Virus record (IMG/VR): IMGVR_UViG_3300020171_000017
Span: 112,685 to 135,529 of that record
Length of the DNA stretch: 22,845 nucleotides
Origin: a virus
Strand: one strand, 5' to 3'
Position 1 is the stretch's first letter; each line of letters starts with the position of its first letter. Positions 295 through 14,806 of the stretch are shown one piece after another. The translations under genes were made by a program, and so were the position numbers. The notes below the pieces were generated by a model. It did no database searches. It had not been told where the DNA came from and saw only the letters and a list, made by a program, of their open reading frames with translations.

Positions 295-1479
295 TCATTT
301 TTTCACATTCATATTTTTATAAAACTCCACCGCCTTTTTGTTCGCCTTAATCAAATTTTGCCTTAAATTTTTTACTGAAAGGCCTGCTTTGGTGCGAACT
401 CTACTCAAAGCTACATATGCTTGACCGCACTCGAAAGTACCTCTGAAATCGATACAGACCTTGTCTAAACTTAATGATTGTGATTTATGGATACTAATGG
501 CATATGCTAATCGTAAAGGTATTTGTGATCGAGAAGCTAATTCAATTTTATCATCCATGATTTTCGCTACGGTTTCATATCCTAAATCTAATGAGATATC
601 GTTATCAAACTTAACCGTGACAGTTTTGCCTATTATCTCTGCGACATTACCTATCGAACCGTTAATTAAACTTAGATCTATATATTTGTTAATTAATAGC
701 ATAACTCTTGCTCCGACTTTTAAATACAGATTTTTAGGTACGAGGCAATTCTTGTCGATAGAAGCTTTATGGTATTCGCTACCACTATCTCTAGCCTCGA
801 AATGATAGATTTGACCTTTAAGTTCAGCAAGTTTAGCTTCGTTAAATTTATCCGCAGGATAATTTAGAGCGAATAAATGTAGTGCGTCATCGTGTTTAGC
901 TGTCGACACAATATCAACAGCTTCACCAAAACGAATCTTATTAAGATCATTCAGAAAATCCACATCATTTTGTCGAAACTGCTCTTCTAAAAGCACAGTT
1001 TGGAAATTAGCTTCTTGCCAAGAGATGCTTTCGAAAGCGAACTTAACTTCTTTACCTTCTTTTTCGACTGGTGGTAGTTGTAGAAAATCGCCAATAACTA
1101 TTAGTTGTATTCCGCCGAAAGGATCGTCATTACGTTTAAGGATTTTAAATACATCGTTGATGAGATCTAGGGTATCGGCACTCAACATAGAGATTTCATC
1201 TATGGCTAAACGACGGCAATAAGAAATACGTGATCTTTGTTCGGTATGCATCGAATAAGCAATCTGGTTGGCTGATCTTTCACCGATTCCGATTCCCGAA
1301 AATGAATGGATGGTTGAACCACCTACATTGATTGCTGCAACGCCTGTTGACGCGGTAACTATAAGATCAGGTAAGTCTTGTTGCAATTTGTTGAGATAAA
1401 AGGACTTTCCTGTGCCAGCATTTCCAGTAATAAAGACATTCTTGTCTGATTGGATAAGAGATAAGATTTTTGTATACAT
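295..1479 (-). CDS. Pif1/RecD-like superfamily 1 DNA helicase
   Basis: A 394-aa ATP-dependent DNA helicase of the Pif1/RecD2-like group, expected to unwind DNA 5'-3' during replication or recombination. Visible motifs are Walker A GNAGTGKS (residues 19-26), an STGVAA motif Ia (44-49), Walker B DEIS (94-97), motif III GDFLQLPPV (130-138), an FRQ motif near 166, and the C-terminal helicase block with HKSQSLSLDKV and YVALSRVRT near residues 335-365. It is near the compact end of family length, with no added domains. The ATG at 1479 is used; a GGAT lies about 10 nt upstream. It begins 23 nt beyond the three-unit structured array and about 320 nt beyond the IS110-like transposase on the same strand. 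Co-transcription through the array is likely, and a functional link with the recombinase is possible but unproven. Confidence 0.9.
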   Translation of the reverse strand: MYTKILSLIQSDKNVFITGNAGTGKSFYLNKLQQDLPDLIVTASTGVAAINVGGSTIHSFSGIGIGERSANQIAYSMHTEQRSRISYCRRLAIDEISMLSADTLDLINDVFKILKRNDDPFGGIQLIVIGDFLQLPPVEKEGKEVKFAFESISWQEANFQTVLLEEQFRQNDVDFLNDLNKIRFGEAVDIVSTAKHDDALHLFALNYPADKFNEAKLAELKGQIYHFEARDSGSEYHKASIDKNCLVPKNLYLKVGARVMLLINKYIDLSLINGSIGNVAEIIGKTVTVKFDNDISLDLGYETVAKIMDDKIELASRSQIPLRLAYAISIHKSQSLSLDKVCIDFRGTFECGQAYVALSRVRTKAGLSVKNLRQNLIKANKKAVEFYKNMNVKK

Positions 1480-1501
1480 TTACATTGTTATCCTTTTTAA
1501 T

Positions 1502-1594
1502 TTAAAGTAGGTGCGTGAAGTGGCAATGGCTCTAAAGGCAGATAAGTTTTATCTGTAACAATTAATTAAAAGTCTTCAAACGCATCTACTTTAA
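1502..1594 (-). ncRNA. Structured array unit 1 (bridge-RNA-like candidate)
   Basis: Outer arms 1502-1516 and 1580-1594 pair over 15 positions; 1511/1585 is a G-T wobble if the plus strand is the RNA. Core 1517-1579 (63 nt) carries, on the plus strand, GAAGTGGC, a 12-nt variable window, the hairpin CAGATAA/TTATCTG with loop GTTT (1539-1555), GTAAC, a 9-nt variable window, then AAGTCTTCAA. GAAG (1517-1520) can pair with CTTC (1574-1577) and extend the outer stem past an AA bulge. It is the most divergent unit (GGC instead of GAC/GTC around the 12-nt window). The strand is assigned as minus only because the flanking genes are transcribed that way. Confidence 0.8.
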
Positions 1595-1605
1595 AGTGTT
1601 ATTAA

Positions 1606-1700
1606 AATTCTTGAAAGGATAGAAGTGACAACCTTGAAAAAGTCAGATAATTTTTATCTGTAACAGCACATTCGAAGTCTTCAATATCCTCTCAAGAATT
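1606..1700 (-). ncRNA. Structured array unit 2 (bridge-RNA-like candidate)
   Basis: Outer arms 1606-1621 and 1685-1700 pair over 16 positions with one exception, 1615/1691, which is A-C on the plus strand but U-G on the minus strand. The arm sequence is unrelated to that of unit 1. The 63-nt core (1622-1684) keeps GAAGTGAC, a 12-nt variable window, GTCAGATAA, a T-rich loop, TTATCTGTAAC, a 9-nt variable window and GAAGTCTTCAA. TGAC and GTCA can close the 12-nt window as a hairpin loop, and CAGATAA/TTATCTG forms a second hairpin sharing the CA. Part of the 12-nt window is complementary, with one bulge, to the end of the 9-nt window plus GAAG. Confidence 0.8.
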
Positions 1701-1710
1701 ATATATAAAT

Positions 1711-1790
1711 CGATCAGTGGAAGTGACATTGTCCATGAAGTCAGATAATTTTATCTGTAACAAACAAATGGAAGTCTTCAACACTGATCG
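1711..1790 (-). ncRNA. Structured array unit 3 (bridge-RNA-like candidate)
   Basis: Outer arms 1711-1719 and 1782-1790 pair perfectly over 9 bp with a sequence unrelated to units 1 and 2. The 62-nt core (1720-1781) keeps GAAGTGAC, a 12-nt variable window, GTCAGATAA, TTTTATCTGTAAC, a 9-nt variable window and GAAGTCTTCAA; it is 1 nt shorter only in the hairpin loop. The TCCAT inside the 12-nt window is complementary to ATGGA at the end of the 9-nt window. The outer arm ends 6 nt before the stop codon of the IS110-like transposase (1797-1799), so on the minus strand this unit lies directly in that gene's 3' untranslated region. Confidence 0.8.
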
Positions 1791-1796
1791 TTGAAT

Positions 1797-2834
1797 TTAA
1801 AAAAAACTTTCAATTCCGTTTTGTTTATCTATTGCTTTTCCTAACAATAAACTAGTTTCTGATTTTTTTGTGATATCAAAATCTTTAAATTTAAAATATA
1901 TTTCTTTGCATAATAAAGTAGATATTTTATTCCTGGCACAGGCATTTGCGTAGCCATCAAAACTTAAATCTTTCCAGCCTTTTGATCTGCGTTGTTCGTT
2001 AAATTTTTCATGTTTTAATTTAAAGGCATCTGAGTTAAGATAATTTTCCCGCATAGACCTATAGATCGGTTCATAAACTTGATTTTCTTGTAGTAGCATT
2101 TGCCCTGTGCATTGATAGAACAAAGATTTTGCCTGGCGATTATATACTTGGTCTGATTTACTACCATTTTTACCGATATAACCACAGTATTTTAAATATT
2201 TTCTTACATTACTGAATAAAAAAGGTGTTGCTGTAATTAAAATTCTGCCAATTAATCTAAACCCTATACCACGTATGTTTAAAAATTCTTTATATAATGA
2301 AAAATATTTATCCATTTTTTGACCCATTAAATCTCGTTGAAAATTAATTGCTTTTAAACTCATTTTCAAGTCACGTAATTGATCTTTAATATTCTCATTG
2401 GGGTATTCACGTTCAAGAGCTAATAAATTTAGTTGTCCACGCACGCTTGTTTTTTCTAGTAAAGAATAGTTATTCTCAATGATTTTTAATGGTAAAAGAG
2501 AAATAGATAAAAGATTAAAATCTATAACTTCTATTTTATTGTTTAATATTGCATAACGTAAGAATAAGGCATCATTAGTATCAGTTTTTAAATAATTAGT
2601 ATTTTTTAGATCATGCAATTTTTTGCTATCAACTAAAAAAATCTGGACACCTGATTTTAATAATACGATTAATTGTTTTTTTGGACAACCTGTTTCTGAA
2701 TACAGAATATCGTTGGGCAAGATAATTGTATTAAGTTCTGCCCAATCAACTTCCAGGATTACCTCATCATTATTCTTACAAACCGCCAATTTTTTTATAT
2801 TTTCATGCGCCCAGTCGATATAATATGTATTCAT
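1797..2834 (-). CDS. IS110-family-like DEDD transposase/recombinase
   Basis: A 345-aa protein with the two-domain layout of IS110 transposases. The N-terminal RuvC-like DEDD domain shows D7 (YID), E47 (SETG), D85 and D88 in the KTDxxDA motif. A helical, coiled-coil-prone stretch spans about 130-185. The C-terminal Transposase_20-type domain starts with RGIGFRLIGRI (188-198) and F..VRKYLKYCGY (207-219), with candidate catalytic serines at 225 and 227. IS110 enzymes recombine DNA through a serine intermediate guided by an element-encoded bridge RNA (family knowledge). The start is ATG 2834 with AGGA 8 nt upstream. A 9-bp inverted repeat lies 31-70 nt upstream of the start and the three-unit structured array begins 6 nt after the stop. 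No complete insertion-sequence ends are recognisable, so it may be a resident recombinase gene and not a simple IS. Confidence 0.85.
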   Translation of the reverse strand: MNTYYIDWAHENIKKLAVCKNNDEVILEVDWAELNTIILPNDILYSETGCPKKQLIVLLKSGVQIFLVDSKKLHDLKNTNYLKTDTNDALFLRYAILNNKIEVIDFNLLSISLLPLKIIENNYSLLEKTSVRGQLNLLALEREYPNENIKDQLRDLKMSLKAINFQRDLMGQKMDKYFSLYKEFLNIRGIGFRLIGRILITATPFLFSNVRKYLKYCGYIGKNGSKSDQVYNRQAKSLFYQCTGQMLLQENQVYEPIYRSMRENYLNSDAFKLKHEKFNEQRRSKGWKDLSFDGYANACARNKISTLLCKEIYFKFKDFDITKKSETSLLLGKAIDKQNGIESFF

Positions 2835-7309: not shown

Positions 7310-8767
7310 TTAATTAATTTGGTTTAACCTTTCAAGTCCAGCTTCAGCAATAAACTGTTTACTTGTAGTTAATATATATTCTTTACTGCGCAAGAAAGGA
7401 AAGATCATTTCTTCAAGAGTATCTCTATCGATATCGCATGTACCTGCCAATGTTTTAATACCCATACCTTTAGGGTATCTTGCCAGAGTAGATAAGACCT
7501 TTAAATCAATTTCAGTCAAGCCGTCTGGCTCTATTTTTTGAGTAGCCATTTCCTCTTGCACCGTAACGGTACTGATACTTTTTTCATGTTTATACACAGA
7601 CCTGTCTCGGCAAGCCATTAGATACCCTATCACCACACGAGGCACGCCGCGCGCGCGTTTAGCAATTTCAAGTACCGCTTCTTTTTCAATCGGTATTTCC
7701 TCTTTTTCAGAATTAAATTGAATAATTTTCACCAAATCGTTGACAGAGTAGGATTTCAAGTAACATGATAAAGGCAACCTATCTCTTAAAGGTTTTTTAA
7801 GTGTGCCTGGGTTTGTAGTAGCGCCGATGATCGTAAAAGGCAACCGCGTGCCGATAATATTAGCCGTAAGTATACAATCTACTCCATCAACTAACACCTT
7901 TGTTCCTGATAAACTTGAATAGAAGATATGAGATTCCATTAAAGAAAAGAACATTTCATCAGGCATTTCCTTACTGGAAAGTTTATGTATCTCATCAAAA
8001 AAAAGAATAGCGTTCTTACCTGATTCCTGAATAAGATCTATTTCACGCATAGCGAAATACAAATCTTTTTGCGAACCGATTGAGCCGCCGGTGCGCTGTA
8101 CGCAGATAGAGTCCATTTCGTTAGCGATTATCTGTGCTAGAGTGGTTTTACCAGTATTATGTGTAATAATCCAATCATTAGTTATGTACCAACCACTAGG
8201 AGAATTAAGTGTAAATCCGTAAACCATTTCTTTTTTATTCTCTGGGGTGACAAACATTGATTTTATCCTTACATTCTTCCATTTAGTAGAGAATTCAATA
8301 GCAGAAGCAAAAATTCCGAATTTATTTCCTATATTTGAAAACTCGCCTGCTGGAACATTTACATAGCTATTACAAGATACACATTTACAAACTAAAAGAT
8401 GTTCTTTAGCAACACGGTATTCTCCATAATTAATTTTTCTAATAACTCCAGATTTCCTTTTACCAACAACAACTTTATAGATATTTGATATATATTTTTT
8501 AGTGTCTAGTACTGTCGCTATAACAGTAGTGTCATCTGATTGAGGAGAAAAGACTTGGTCGCCTTTTTTAATTAACTCAACATTTTTCCATTTCCCATTA
8601 GCCATCAAAACTTTTTGTCCTTTAGGTTGGCATCCAGCCTGGCCATATAACAGAATATTAGGTAACATAGTTGAACGTGCTTTAGCTGAAACGATAGCGA
8701 TACGCAGCCTTTCTACCGTATCTTTGTTAGTTTCTCCTTGAAACTCTTCAAGTGTTGTCGGTCTCAT
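7310..8767 (-). CDS. ruvB: Holliday-junction helicase RuvB interrupted by a mini-intein
   Basis: RuvB is the AAA+ motor that drives branch migration of Holliday junctions. Numbering from the upstream GTG at 8779 (489 aa), the Walker A loop is split: GQAG (46-49), then a 159-aa intein (50-208), then TGKTT (209-213). Splicing would give GQAGTGKT and a RuvB of about 330 aa, the usual length. Other RuvB signatures are DEIH (262-265), sensor 1 GATTN (319-323), arginine-finger region PLRDR (330-334), sensor 2 RGVPR, and the C-terminal winged helix. The GTG at 8779 lacks an RBS; ATG 8767 (residue 5) has GGA upstream and is preferred. The gene overlaps the integrase end. No RuvA or RuvC is visible nearby. 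Confidence 0.93.
   Translation of the reverse strand: MRPTTLEEFQGETNKDTVERLRIAIVSAKARSTMLPNILLYGQAGCQPKGQKVLMANGKWKNVELIKKGDQVFSPQSDDTTVIATVLDTKKYISNIYKVVVGKRKSGVIRKINYGEYRVAKEHLLVCKCVSCNSYVNVPAGEFSNIGNKFGIFASAIEFSTKWKNVRIKSMFVTPENKKEMVYGFTLNSPSGWYITNDWIITHNTGKTTLAQIIANEMDSICVQRTGGSIGSQKDLYFAMREIDLIQESGKNAILFFDEIHKLSSKEMPDEMFFSLMESHIFYSSLSGTKVLVDGVDCILTANIIGTRLPFTIIGATTNPGTLKKPLRDRLPLSCYLKSYSVNDLVKIIQFNSEKEEIPIEKEAVLEIAKRARGVPRVVIGYLMACRDRSVYKHEKSISTVTVQEEMATQKIEPDGLTEIDLKVLSTLARYPKGMGIKTLAGTCDIDRDTLEEMIFPFLRSKEYILTTSKQFIAEAGLERLNQIN
8156..8632 (-). other. Mini-intein within RuvB Walker A motif
   Basis: The insert starts with Cys (codon 8630-8632) and ends with THN (Asn codon 8156-8158), followed by extein Thr. 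These are the residues needed for protein splicing: N-terminal Cys, penultimate His, terminal Asn and a hydroxyl +1 residue. The opening block CQPKGQKVLM with KKGDQV resembles intein block A, and VAKEHLL resembles block B with its His; the usual Thr there is replaced by Ala. GFTLN...GWYITNDWIITHN matches block F plus G. With 159 aa and no LAGLIDADG or HNH endonuclease, it is a minimal intein. Splicing is required for any ATPase activity because the insert breaks the P-loop. CKC and SC Cys in the centre might form a redox or metal switch. Confidence 0.93.
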
Positions 8768-9725
8768 TAGATTTTCCACTGTACATTTTTTGCTCTACCT
8801 TCATTGCGGCTTTACTAATGAAGTTAGGTGATACGCTCACATATCTATCAAGTTGCGAGAATGAACTCCAACCCATTATCGCGCGTAACGCGTGAATATC
8901 ACCGCCTGATTCTATCCATCTGGTACAAAAAGTATGGCGTGCGAGATGCGAACCGTAAGGCTTGTTCCATGAGTTCTTATAAGGAAACGCTACATCAATA
9001 ATATTTTTCATCGCATAATAAACATAATCACGCCGCAATGGCTTGCCCCAGTGGTTAAAGAAGATATTGCTGATAGGTGAAGGATACTTGATTAAGTAAG
9101 ATTCTAACACTTCTTTAGTGCGTTTTGATATAGGCACACGTCTTTCTCTATACTTACCCTTTACGTCTTCTTTTGGCAAGAAGATCAACCTTTTTTCAAG
9201 ATCGATATTTTCTTTTTTAATTGAGATGATTTCTTTCGCGCGCAGGCCTGAAGTTATCGCGATATAGAAGAGTAACTTTTCTCTTAATTCAATTAAAGGA
9301 CCTTCAACCGCTTTTAACAGTAAACGTATCTCTTTAAGTGTTATAGTGCGATAAGTACCTCCACTGCCGTTTGGCGGTGATTTCAATCCTTTAGCTGGGT
9401 TCTTCGCGTCATCAAGGTAACGTTCTAATACCAAGAACTTAAAGAAAGTTTTTAGCTTTACGATAGCTAATTGAAGAGTAGTAATACTCTTCCAACGGCC
9501 GTCGGTTTTCTTTTTAATGATATAATTGCGTAGATCGGTAGTGGTAACTTCTAGTAATGATTTATCAATATCATTTAAAATCATAACAAAGAATCGTTGC
9601 CAGTTGTAAATAGTTACAGGGCTAAGTAACGCTATAGAACTGAGATATGCTTCGGTAAGTTGTTTATTCGACCAAGTTGGCGGTGTTGGTATTGTTTGGT
9701 TTTGATTCAAGATTTCATTTTCCAT
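8748..9725 (-). CDS. Tyrosine recombinase (phage-type integrase)
   Basis: A 325-aa XerC/D-like integrase that would insert and excise the element at att sites. The N-terminal SAM-like core-binding domain spans about 20-110. The catalytic domain shows R162 (SGLRAKE), H260-x-x-R263 (HLAR), W286 in place of the third His (IMGWSS) and nucleophile Tyr295 (DRYVSVS). Trp at that position is tolerated in some family members. The gene has its own consensus promoter (9753-9781) and follows an excisionase-like gene, the usual integration module. Its 3' end overlaps the RuvB start. The ATG at 9725 lacks a strong RBS, so translation may be modest despite the promoter. Confidence 0.93.
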   Translation of the reverse strand: MENEILNQNQTIPTPPTWSNKQLTEAYLSSIALLSPVTIYNWQRFFVMILNDIDKSLLEVTTTDLRNYIIKKKTDGRWKSITTLQLAIVKLKTFFKFLVLERYLDDAKNPAKGLKSPPNGSGGTYRTITLKEIRLLLKAVEGPLIELREKLLFYIAITSGLRAKEIISIKKENIDLEKRLIFLPKEDVKGKYRERRVPISKRTKEVLESYLIKYPSPISNIFFNHWGKPLRRDYVYYAMKNIIDVAFPYKNSWNKPYGSHLARHTFCTRWIESGGDIHALRAIMGWSSFSQLDRYVSVSPNFISKAAMKVEQKMYSGKSNETDNT

Positions 9726-12986: not shown

Positions 12987-13151
12987 TTAAATCATATCTT
13001 TTTTGTCCTTCTTAAACTGAAGTTTGCCGATCGGGCATGATATTTCTTTACAATTATCGACAATTTTTTGCATAGGATTAAAGTTGCTTCGGCAACGGTT
13101 CTTAACATATTGTTTACAGAAAGTTTTCAAAATCTCGAATTCTATTTGCAT
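12987..13151 (-). CDS. Cys-rich small protein, 54 aa
   Basis: A 54-aa basic protein from ATG 13151, whose start overlaps the last codons of the truncated methyltransferase gene; GGTGA lies 6 nt upstream. Four Cys (12, 20, 34, 39) with C-x7-C and C-x4-C spacing suggest a metal-binding fold. The overlap suggests coupled translation with the methyltransferase fragment. Function unknown. Confidence 0.55.
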   Translation of the reverse strand: MQIEFEILKTFCKQYVKNRCRSNFNPMQKIVDNCKEISCPIGKLQFKKDKKDMI

Positions 13152-13450
13152 ATGTTCTCACCATCTGCTGGACCTAACATACTTTTAAATCCGACTATCG
13201 TCTTAACTATTTTATTATCACAAGTATCGACTATTTCTGCGTAAGTTTTTTCAGCTTCTATATCCCACCGCCAGGTATCTTCAAATGCTTGAATTTGAGC
13301 TTTTGATTTTGTGCCGTCTTGCTCTTGAAACAAAAGATTATAATTCTTACCTGACTGAAACGGTGGGTCAAGGTAAATTAAATCAATCGATTCGGTTGGG
13401 ATATGTTTTCTTAAAATTTCTAAATTATCACCATAATAAAGTGCGTTCAT
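13142..13450 (-). pseudogene. N-terminal fragment of a DPPF-type adenine DNA methyltransferase
   Basis: The 102 aa match the start of large DNA adenine methyltransferases: LYYGDNLEILRKHI, then catalytic motif IV IYLDPPF (25-31), QSGKNYN, and the AFEDTWRWDIEAEKTYAEIV block. Full enzymes continue for several hundred residues to the FxGxG SAM-binding motif, which is absent. Here the frame ends soon after FKSMLGPADGE, replaced by a short new tail. Without the SAM site it cannot methylate alone. It is most likely a deletion remnant, though the clean overlap with the upstream regulator (ATGA) and the downstream Cys-rich gene shows the locus has settled into an expressed arrangement. Confidence 0.8.
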
Positions 13451-13817: not shown

Positions 13818-14792
13818 TCATAGTCCTTTCTTGTTCTGCAACTCTTTTGTTAATACTTCAATTGTTTTTTTGTATATTCTGCGTAACGAAGTTATAGTAT
13901 TTCTATTCAGGCGTTTTCTCTCTAATTTAGAAATGCCTTTGATCGCATCCGAAAGACAAGAAAAGATATAAAGCGCATGTTGATTGTCCGAAATCATCTT
14001 TTTATCCTCGTGCATCTTTTTATGCTCTATAATTCTATCCTCGGACTCTTCTTCTGTTTCTTTTGCTGTTTGCAGGGATATCAAATCTGCTTCACCAGAT
14101 AAGATTTTGTTTTTAATATTTGTTGGAGCGGTTTTATACATCGTAATCAGTTTAGCCTGATCGCCCGTCCTTTGTGCGATAGAAGATTTTAATGCTGTTG
14201 CCAATGCTTTTTGTTCTTCGTGGTTTTTAAATAAAGAGAGCATCTCCGCCTGGCTAAGGTTAATCATATCGCTTTGCGGTTTATGGCCGCCCTCTTGGCT
14301 CTCTATCTTGTTTATTAAATCTGGAGCTAAATTCTCGGCTATACGCAGCAGTGCCCAAATTCCTTCTTTATTAACTGTTTTACCATCAACCGATATGAAT
14401 TTAACAATATCAGCAGCATTAACATTTTTATAGTGTAACGTATCTATTAAATACTTTTTCGCTAAAACAGCTGATCGCATACGTAAATTCCAACCATGCT
14501 CTCTGGTAAGGTTTTCCCGCAACAACTCAACGAGCATTTTACTATCGTTATAATCTCTGATTAATATTTCAACTTCAATCCCTGTGCCGTAATAAGATCT
14601 TAATGCTTCAAGCCGATGATGGCCATATACAAGTTGGTATCCACTGCCAGTAATACGTACTTCAAACCTTTGGTTTTTGCCGAAATCCGACATTTTAAAA
14701 CTTTCTTTAATCCTATCGATTTGATTATTATCAAGGTTGCCAAGTTCTTTTCTAAACGGATTCGGTGCTATTAACTTTTCAATAACTTTCAT
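13818..14792 (-). CDS. ParB-like partition/nuclease-domain protein
   Basis: A 324-aa protein with a ParB N-terminal (ParB/Srx) domain. From the upstream ATG, the NPFRKEL motif comes first (13-19), then YGHHRLEAL (58-66, the GxHR nucleotide-binding motif) and ELLRENLTRE (91-100). These elements bind CTP in chromosomal ParB proteins. A helix-rich region follows with a possible helix-turn-helix about 110-150, then a charged coiled coil (240-270). No ParA ATPase is adjacent, so it may act in phage DNA processing or regulation, not partition. The RBS AGGAG touches the first ATG (14798), so the second ATG (14792) is preferred. Its stop overlaps the winged-helix gene. Confidence 0.88.
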   Translation of the reverse strand: MKVIEKLIAPNPFRKELGNLDNNQIDRIKESFKMSDFGKNQRFEVRITGSGYQLVYGHHRLEALRSYYGTGIEVEILIRDYNDSKMLVELLRENLTREHGWNLRMRSAVLAKKYLIDTLHYKNVNAADIVKFISVDGKTVNKEGIWALLRIAENLAPDLINKIESQEGGHKPQSDMINLSQAEMLSLFKNHEEQKALATALKSSIAQRTGDQAKLITMYKTAPTNIKNKILSGEADLISLQTAKETEEESEDRIIEHKKMHEDKKMISDNQHALYIFSCLSDAIKGISKLERKRLNRNTITSLRRIYKKTIEVLTKELQNKKGL

Positions 14793-14806
14793 TTTCATCT
14801 CCTTTT

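What the first reader, a model, noticed from the sequence alone, without database searches (positions are those of the whole stretch)
1502..1790. Three-unit structured RNA array directly downstream of an IS110-like recombinase
Seen: three tandem units of 80-95 nt at a pitch of about 100 nt, each with a shared 62-63-nt core and its own outer stem, starting 6 nt after the transposase stop codon and ending 23 nt before a Pif1-like helicase gene. Known: IS110-family enzymes are guided by an element-encoded bridge RNA (normally one per element). Inference: this looks like an array of guide RNAs, giving one recombinase several programmed specificities. I know of no described IS110 locus with a tandem array, so this is the best candidate here for a new system.
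Basis: partly seen in the sequence, partly recalled or inferred. Interest (0 to 1): 0.96.

Follow-up and report, generated by a model that had tools for sequence, protein, structure and literature searches.

The report
Phage TIGR-Tas guide-RNA stem-loop array

Summary
Three tandem units lie on the minus strand between a 345-aa protein gene and a Pif1-like helicase gene. Their outer stems differ in sequence but covary (8 pairs changed on both sides, 0 of 500 shuffles). The reading as an IS110 recombinase with several bridge RNAs is only half right. Each unit decodes as box C (GACTT), 9-nt spacer A, box D (TGTTAC), constant 7-bp hairpin, box C, 9-nt spacer B, box D (TGYCAC), all six spacers being exactly 9 nt. 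That is the stem-loop form of TIGR arrays (Faure et al. 2025, PMC12045711). I found the same template (GACGA-9-TGTC, twice per hairpin) beside Tas genes in Patescibacteria. The protein matches the NCBIfam TIGR-Tas model (E 1e-9, but below its curated cut-off). It follows Tas through the C-terminus and lacks the IS110 catalytic serine (N in its place), yet keeps four RuvC/DEDD acids (D7, E47, D85, D88). Most likely it is a divergent TasR-like, RNA-guided DNA-binding or nicking protein with three programmed guides. Neither expression nor targets could be shown. This is a new member of a known kind; the possibly new point is an active-looking RuvC paired with a stem-loop array.

The parts
1797..2834 (-). 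tas-like gene, 345 aa: N-terminal RuvC/DEDD-like region (D7, E47, D85, D88) plus C-terminal Nop-type RNA-binding region (about aa 130-318)
   Evidence: NCBIfam TIGR_Tas_endo E 1e-9 on aa 142-283; IS110 model E 2e-4, best on aa 44-92; alignment with Tas and IS110; one copy in the record
1711..1790 (-). unit U1 (first in the transcript): stem CGATCAGTG/CACTGATCG, spacer A CCATTTGTT (1763-1771), spacer B CATGGACAA (1729-1737)
1603..1703 (-). unit U2: 19-nt arms 1685-1703/1603-1621, spacer A CGAATGTGC (1666-1674), spacer B TTTCAAGGT (1631-1639)
1501..1595 (-). unit U3: 16-nt arms 1580-1595/1501-1516, spacer A TTAATTAAT (1561-1569), spacer B TAGAGCCAT (1526-1534)
295..1479 (-). Pif1/Dda-like helicase gene downstream of the array; phage backbone gene rather than part of the system
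   Evidence: Pfam PIF1 E 9e-36; 63% identical homologue in a related phage that has no tas match

Best explanation
The locus is a TIGR-Tas system of the stem-loop-array type carried by a tailed phage. The array is transcribed with the tas gene and cut into three hairpin guide RNAs. Each hairpin binds a symmetric dimer of the Tas protein through two near-identical box C/D-like motifs, one at the outer stem and one at the inner hairpin. Its two 9-nt spacers pair with the two opposite strands of an approximately 18-bp DNA site. Because the RuvC-like acids are kept, the protein probably cuts or nicks the site; failing that, it bends and blocks it. Shown here: array architecture, 9-nt spacers, pseudo-symmetric boxes, covarying stems, relationship of the protein to Tas, loss of the IS110 serine, presence of the four acids. 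Inferred from the TIGR-Tas paper: transcription, processing, dimer binding, two-strand targeting, cleavage. Not known: the natural targets; competition with other mobile elements or regulation of the phage's own DNA are both possible.
For: (1) In all three units, GMCTT - exactly 9 nt - TGTTAC - AGATAA(2-3 nt)TTATCT - GMCTT - exactly 9 nt - TGYCAC. Both ends of the internal loop read spacer-TG-TYA-[helix]-M-CTT-spacer, the pseudo-two-fold symmetry the TIGR paper describes for a symmetric dimer. (2) Outer stems are different in sequence and covary, as in the paper's stem-loop arrays: 'variable but consistently palindromic' edges, two 8-12-nt spacers, linker sometimes conserved. (3) Patescibacterial genomes with Tas genes carry the same template with other boxes: 18 regular-expression matches GACGA-9-TGTC-linker-GACGN-9-TGTC, all 9+9 although 7-12 was allowed, in L195, L197, L198 and L199, most inside stems of 8 or more pairs. 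(4) TIGR_Tas_endo E 1e-9. (5) The IS110 serine column holds N-G in the window, as [D/E/G/N]-G in most Tas, against S-G in 10/10 IS110. (6) The alignment to my 13-member Tas profile runs to aa 313; the IS110 profile match ends at aa 218, before the serine region.
Against: The protein is only about 14-18% identical to any Tas found and scores 38.7 bits against the Tas model, below its 100-bit cut-off; real IS110 proteins score 22-52 bits against the same model, so the model alone does not decide. The tree puts the window on the Tas side (100/99), but on a very long branch, and a tree joining it to IS110 is not rejected (AU p = 0.30). No close homologue was found in viral contigs, genome contigs, phages or plasmids, so conservation of the locus could not be tested. 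The single-sequence AlphaFold model was unusable (pLDDT 38). No target was found.
Confidence: 0.86

Rival explanations
1. An IS110-family transposase or invertase with a tandem array of bridge RNAs that gives one recombinase several programmed sites.
For: DEDD-type region with a KTDxxDA motif identical in style to IS110; phrog_4285 'transposase' E 8e-6; AU test does not exclude grouping with IS110.
Against: IS110 catalytic serine replaced by N and the following IS110 motif missing; 20 bits against the IS110 model versus 154-262 for real members; each unit has one guide loop, not a target loop plus a donor loop; single copy in the record.
Confidence: 0.07
2. A sub-reading of the TIGR-Tas explanation: a catalytically silent, TasA-like or regulatory Tas. 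The RNP binds DNA and bends or represses it without cutting, perhaps acting on the phage's own genome.
For: The Patescibacterial Tas of my sample that have stem arrays lack the first acid; both spacers of U3 occur exactly, 3 nt apart, in one intergenic site next to the phage tmRNA gene (genome 70944-70964; 0 of 400 simulated genomes).
Against: D7, E47, D85 and D88 are all kept; the U3 site has both spacers on the same strand, not the opposite-strand geometry reported for Tas; the test was framed after the match was seen; U1 and U2 have no such site and the canonical geometry gives only chance matches.
Confidence: 0.3
3. The hairpins are DNA sites or mRNA-stability hairpins (integron attC-like, terminators, protein-binding repeats) unrelated to guide function.
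For: Some phage intergenic hairpins act this way (general knowledge); no RNA-seq is available here.
Against: attC-like and binding-site repeats keep the outer ends constant and vary inside; here the outer stems vary and covary while two 9-nt inner blocks vary between constant boxes; no terminator call in the array; no Rfam family at gathering score.
Confidence: 0.06

Closest known systems
TIGR-Tas systems with stem-loop arrays (Faure et al. 2025, PMC12045711, section on stem-loop arrays)
   Different: Boxes here are GACTT/TG(T/C)(T/C)AC; only three units against the 13 of the tested example; the protein is short, very divergent and keeps four RuvC-type acids, whereas the paper's stem-array examples are a TasA and an inactive-RuvC TasR clade.
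TasR with dual-repeat TIGR arrays (TaTasR, ParTasR)
   Same: N-terminal RuvC with acidic tetrad plus Nop domain; 9-nt spacers; similar length (TaTasR 331 aa).
   Different: Dual-repeat arrays have constant edge repeats of 8-12 nt and a 36-nt product; here the edges are long variable stems.
IS110 transposase with bridge RNA (IS621, ISCro4)
   Same: Related RNA-binding domain, DEDD-type acids, two-sided guide loop.
   Different: No catalytic serine, no two-loop bispecific RNA, several guides, single-copy gene.
Box C/D sRNP (Nop5, sRNA)
   Same: Pseudo-symmetric RNA with two guides between C and D type motifs; weak sub-threshold Rfam match of U2 to a C/D snoRNA (17.6 bits, E 0.43).
   Different: No canonical RUGAUGA box C, no fibrillarin or L7Ae partner seen next to the gene; RuvC acids intact.

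Membership tests
TIGR-Tas (stem-loop array type) | Tandem units with two 8-12-nt spacers flanked by box C/box D type motifs | tested here: met
   Six of six spacers 9 nt between GMCTT and TG(T/C)(T/C)AC
TIGR-Tas (stem-loop array type) | Variable palindromic edges instead of edge repeats | tested here: met
   Covarying outer stems, 0 of 500 shuffles
TIGR-Tas (stem-loop array type) | Boxes shared between edge and loop (pseudo-symmetry) | tested here: met
   TG-TYA-[helix]-M-CTT at both edge and loop in the three units
TIGR-Tas (stem-loop array type) | Same template beside bona fide Tas genes | tested here: met
   18 matches, all 9+9, in L195, L197, L198, L199
TIGR-Tas (stem-loop array type) | Adjacent Nop-domain Tas protein above the curated model cut-off | tested here: inconclusive
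   E 1e-9 but 38.7 bits against a cut-off of 100; aligns with Tas to the C-terminus; tree not decisive
TIGR-Tas (stem-loop array type) | Array transcribed, processed and bound by Tas; opposite-strand DNA targeting | not testable with these tools
   Needs RNA-seq, pull-down and cleavage assays
IS110 family transposase | DEDD acidic residues | tested here: met
   D7, E47, D85, D88; E47 is shifted by one residue relative to the IS110 E
IS110 family transposase | Catalytic serine in the C-terminal Tnp domain | tested here: not met
   N in the window, S in 10 of 10 IS110
IS110 family transposase | Score above the NCBIfam IS110 cut-off (140 bits) | tested here: not met
   20.5 bits; controls 154-262
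IS110 family transposase | One bispecific bridge RNA with target and donor loops | tested here: not met
   Three units, one loop each
Box C/D sRNP | Canonical kink-turn boxes RUGAUGA / CUGA with L7Ae and fibrillarin | tested here: not met
   No RUGAUGA in the units; no Rfam match at gathering score; none of the ten window proteins scanned with Pfam was fibrillarin or L7Ae

The most novel reading that the evidence does not exclude
A nuclease-competent TasR (all four RuvC acids) that works with a stem-loop TIGR array, a combination absent from the stem-array examples described in the paper's text, with one guide possibly drawn from a site in the phage's own genome beside its tmRNA gene.
Probability: 0.35. 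Interest if true: 0.62.

Novelty: new member of a known kind. Interest (0 to 1): 0.45.

Why it matters
TIGR-Tas is recent and its natural role, targets and array evolution are open. A compact, three-guide, single-gene stem-loop system in a phage with an active-looking RuvC would be a small and easily testable model. It bridges dual-repeat TasR nucleases and stem-loop arrays, and lies close to the split between Tas and IS110. It also warns that 'IS110-like' genes in phages may be Tas proteins.

Tried and rejected
Pattern searches for sister arrays in viral contigs: GAAGACTT-9-TGTTAC gave chance hits only, and the two-box pattern gave tail-fibre coding repeats and other repeats, not arrays. Close homologues of the protein: none in viral contigs, genome contigs, phages or plasmids; no significant PDB match. 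Profile search of 398 genomes of the Oscillospiraceae MAG's phylum: no match over the Tas cut-off, and the four loci read out were IS110s. A3 profile search of viral contigs: nothing. Window protein against 362 Patescibacteria: best E 0.002, nothing convincing. Phylogeny: not decisive. Single-sequence AlphaFold: too poor for a fold search. Target search in A + rc(B) geometry: own genome best 3 mismatches, chance level; viral contigs 1, 17 and 6 exact matches, in unrelated coding contexts or near-identical copies of one region. Integron attC, CRISPR and terminator readings were rejected on anatomy.

Full report
1. Observation. The window is genome positions 112685-135529 of a 135,529-bp IMG/VR virus record; the record has terminase-like and portal-like genes and a long tape-measure-like ORF, judged by eye from the translations, so it is a tailed phage. 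On the minus strand the order is a 345-aa gene (2834-1797), three hairpin units (1790-1501) and a Pif1/Dda-like helicase gene (1479-295). Single-strand folding of each unit beats dinucleotide shuffles (z -3.1 to -4.7). On the alignment of the three units the outer stem has 8 pairs changed on both sides, 98% of cells paired over the whole structure and no shuffle of 500 as good; sliding the partners by 1-3 columns destroys it. The stems are therefore selected as stems, with different sequences.

2. Decoding. Read 5'->3' on the minus strand, each unit is: 5' outer arm - (T)TGAAGACTT - 9 nt - TGTTACAGATAA(2-3 nt)TTATCTG(A/C)CTT - 9 nt - TG(T/C)CACTTC - 3' outer arm. Spacers: U1 CCATTTGTT / CATGGACAA; U2 CGAATGTGC / TTTCAAGGT; U3 TTAATTAAT / TAGAGCCAT. 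At both ends of the internal loop the reading is spacer-TG-TYA-[helix]-M-CTT-spacer: at the outer end the helix is the variable stem, at the inner end the constant 7-bp hairpin. This is the pseudo-two-fold arrangement described for tigRNAs bound by a symmetric Tas dimer, whose boxes covary between edge and loop. [quoted passage not shown] The window array meets each point.

3. Comparison with Tas loci found here. With the NCBIfam model NF052498 (TIGR_Tas_endo) I searched 380 genomes of the phylum of a Saccharibacteria MAG. Ten had a match over the curated cut-off. Their neighbourhoods contain stem-loop arrays with other boxes, for example in L198 repeated hairpins GACGA - 9 nt - TGTC - linker - GACGA - 9 nt - TGTC. 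A regular expression that allowed 7-12 nt for each spacer returned 18 matches in four loci, all 9 + 9 (a few of these sit across neighbouring units). The window array is the same template with different box sequences.

4. The protein. No Pfam match. TIGR_Tas_endo E 1e-9, 38.7 bits (cut-off 100), aa 142-283; IS110 model E 2e-4, 20.5 bits (cut-off 140), best on aa 44-92. Controls show that the Tas model alone is not decisive: six IS110 transposases score 22-52 bits on it and 154-262 bits on the IS110 model, and three Patescibacterial Tas score 76-130 on the Tas model and 31-52 on the IS110 model. The window protein is remote from both. Three features lean to Tas. The IS110 catalytic serine (S241 in IS621, S in 10/10 IS110 compared) is N in the window, in a [D/E/G/N]-G context typical of Tas. 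A 13-member Tas profile aligns through to aa 313, while the IS110 profile stops at aa 218. In the Nop-region tree it falls on the Tas side of a 100/99 branch, though with a long branch and without rejecting the alternative (AU p = 0.30). The N-terminal part keeps D7, E47, D85 and D88, so the RuvC-like site may be active; none of the 13 Patescibacterial Tas shows the D7 equivalent in my alignment.

5. Mechanism proposed. Transcription through tas and the array gives hairpin guide RNAs; a Tas dimer binds the two equivalent box motifs; the two spacers pair with opposite strands of an approximately 18-bp DNA site; the RuvC-like domains then cut or nick it, or the complex blocks the site. The anatomy, spacers, symmetry and domain make-up are shown here. 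Processing, binding and targeting rest on the published systems and are inferred for this locus.

6. Targets. In A + rc(B) geometry, derived from the 8-nt 3' overhangs and the cut rule in the paper and from the order of guides in IS110 bridge RNAs (own knowledge), the phage genome has only chance-level matches (best 3 mismatches). Exact matches in viral contigs number 1, 17 and 6, in unrelated coding contexts or copies of one region. One oddity: both U3 spacers occur exactly on the same strand, 3 nt apart, at genome 70944-70964, in an intergenic stretch about 93 nt downstream of a phage tmRNA gene and near the switch of gene strand and GC skew. No simulated genome of 400 had such a pair, but the test was framed after the match was seen and the geometry is not the canonical one. 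I leave it as unexplained.

7. Spread. A phage record with 76% identical terminase (G004, 175 kb) has a 63% identical Pif1 gene but no match to the Tas-like protein, and only other short ORFs upstream of Pif1; the system looks like an accessory module. No close homologue of the protein was found in any collection searched.

8. Verdict. The array is real and is a guide-RNA array. It belongs, by anatomy, to the known TIGR stem-loop class, served by a very divergent Tas-like protein. It works like a TIGR-Tas system with high probability; strict membership of the protein in the curated Tas family is not met by score and is called inconclusive. It is not an IS110 transposase by the serine and model tests. 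The possibly new aspect, an active-looking RuvC combined with a stem-loop array, needs experiment; I could not see the paper's tree figure, so I cannot say that no such combination is already in it. The confidence of the rival 'silent Tas' is a split within the best explanation, not on top of it.

Noticed in passing
window 7310-8779 (-): RuvB-like AAA ATPase interrupted in its Walker A motif (GQAG|C...HN|TGKTT) by what looks like a mini-intein (weak Hom_end_hint match).
   Followed up: no
L125 10041-19105 (genome 70041-79105): Phage-encoded cluster of 18 tRNA genes and a tmRNA gene, at the point where gene strand and GC skew switch.
   Followed up: partly
L125 10944-10964 (genome 70944-70964): Exact copies of both U3 spacers, same strand, 3 nt apart, about 93 nt downstream of the tmRNA gene; 0 of 400 simulated genomes show such a pair, but post hoc and in a non-canonical geometry.
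   Followed up: partly
L123 1365-2510 (genome 21365-22510): TnpB/OrfB-like protein (zinc-finger motif CSRCGS...CTSCGH) in a region rich in glycosyltransferase- and nucleotide-sugar-type genes; judged by eye from the translation, not searched.
   Followed up: no
L124 4744-7752 (genome 44744-47752): 1002-aa ORF with a long SPSISPS low-complexity repeat.
   Followed up: no
window 13818-14798 (-): ParB-like gene (phrog_3264, E 1e-8); the TIGR paper reports ParB genes in operons with some TasA genes, but here it lies 11 kb away.
   Followed up: no
window 13142-13450 (-): 102-aa ORF that begins like an N4/N6 DNA methylase (YGDNLEIL...DLIYLDPPF) and then loses similarity, perhaps a truncated gene; judged by eye.
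   Followed up: no
L143 and L145 (viral contigs): Same 59-nt sequence with an internal direct repeat (GACTTTATTCTTTATGTGAC twice) in two viral contigs, found as an off-target of the array pattern.
   Followed up: no
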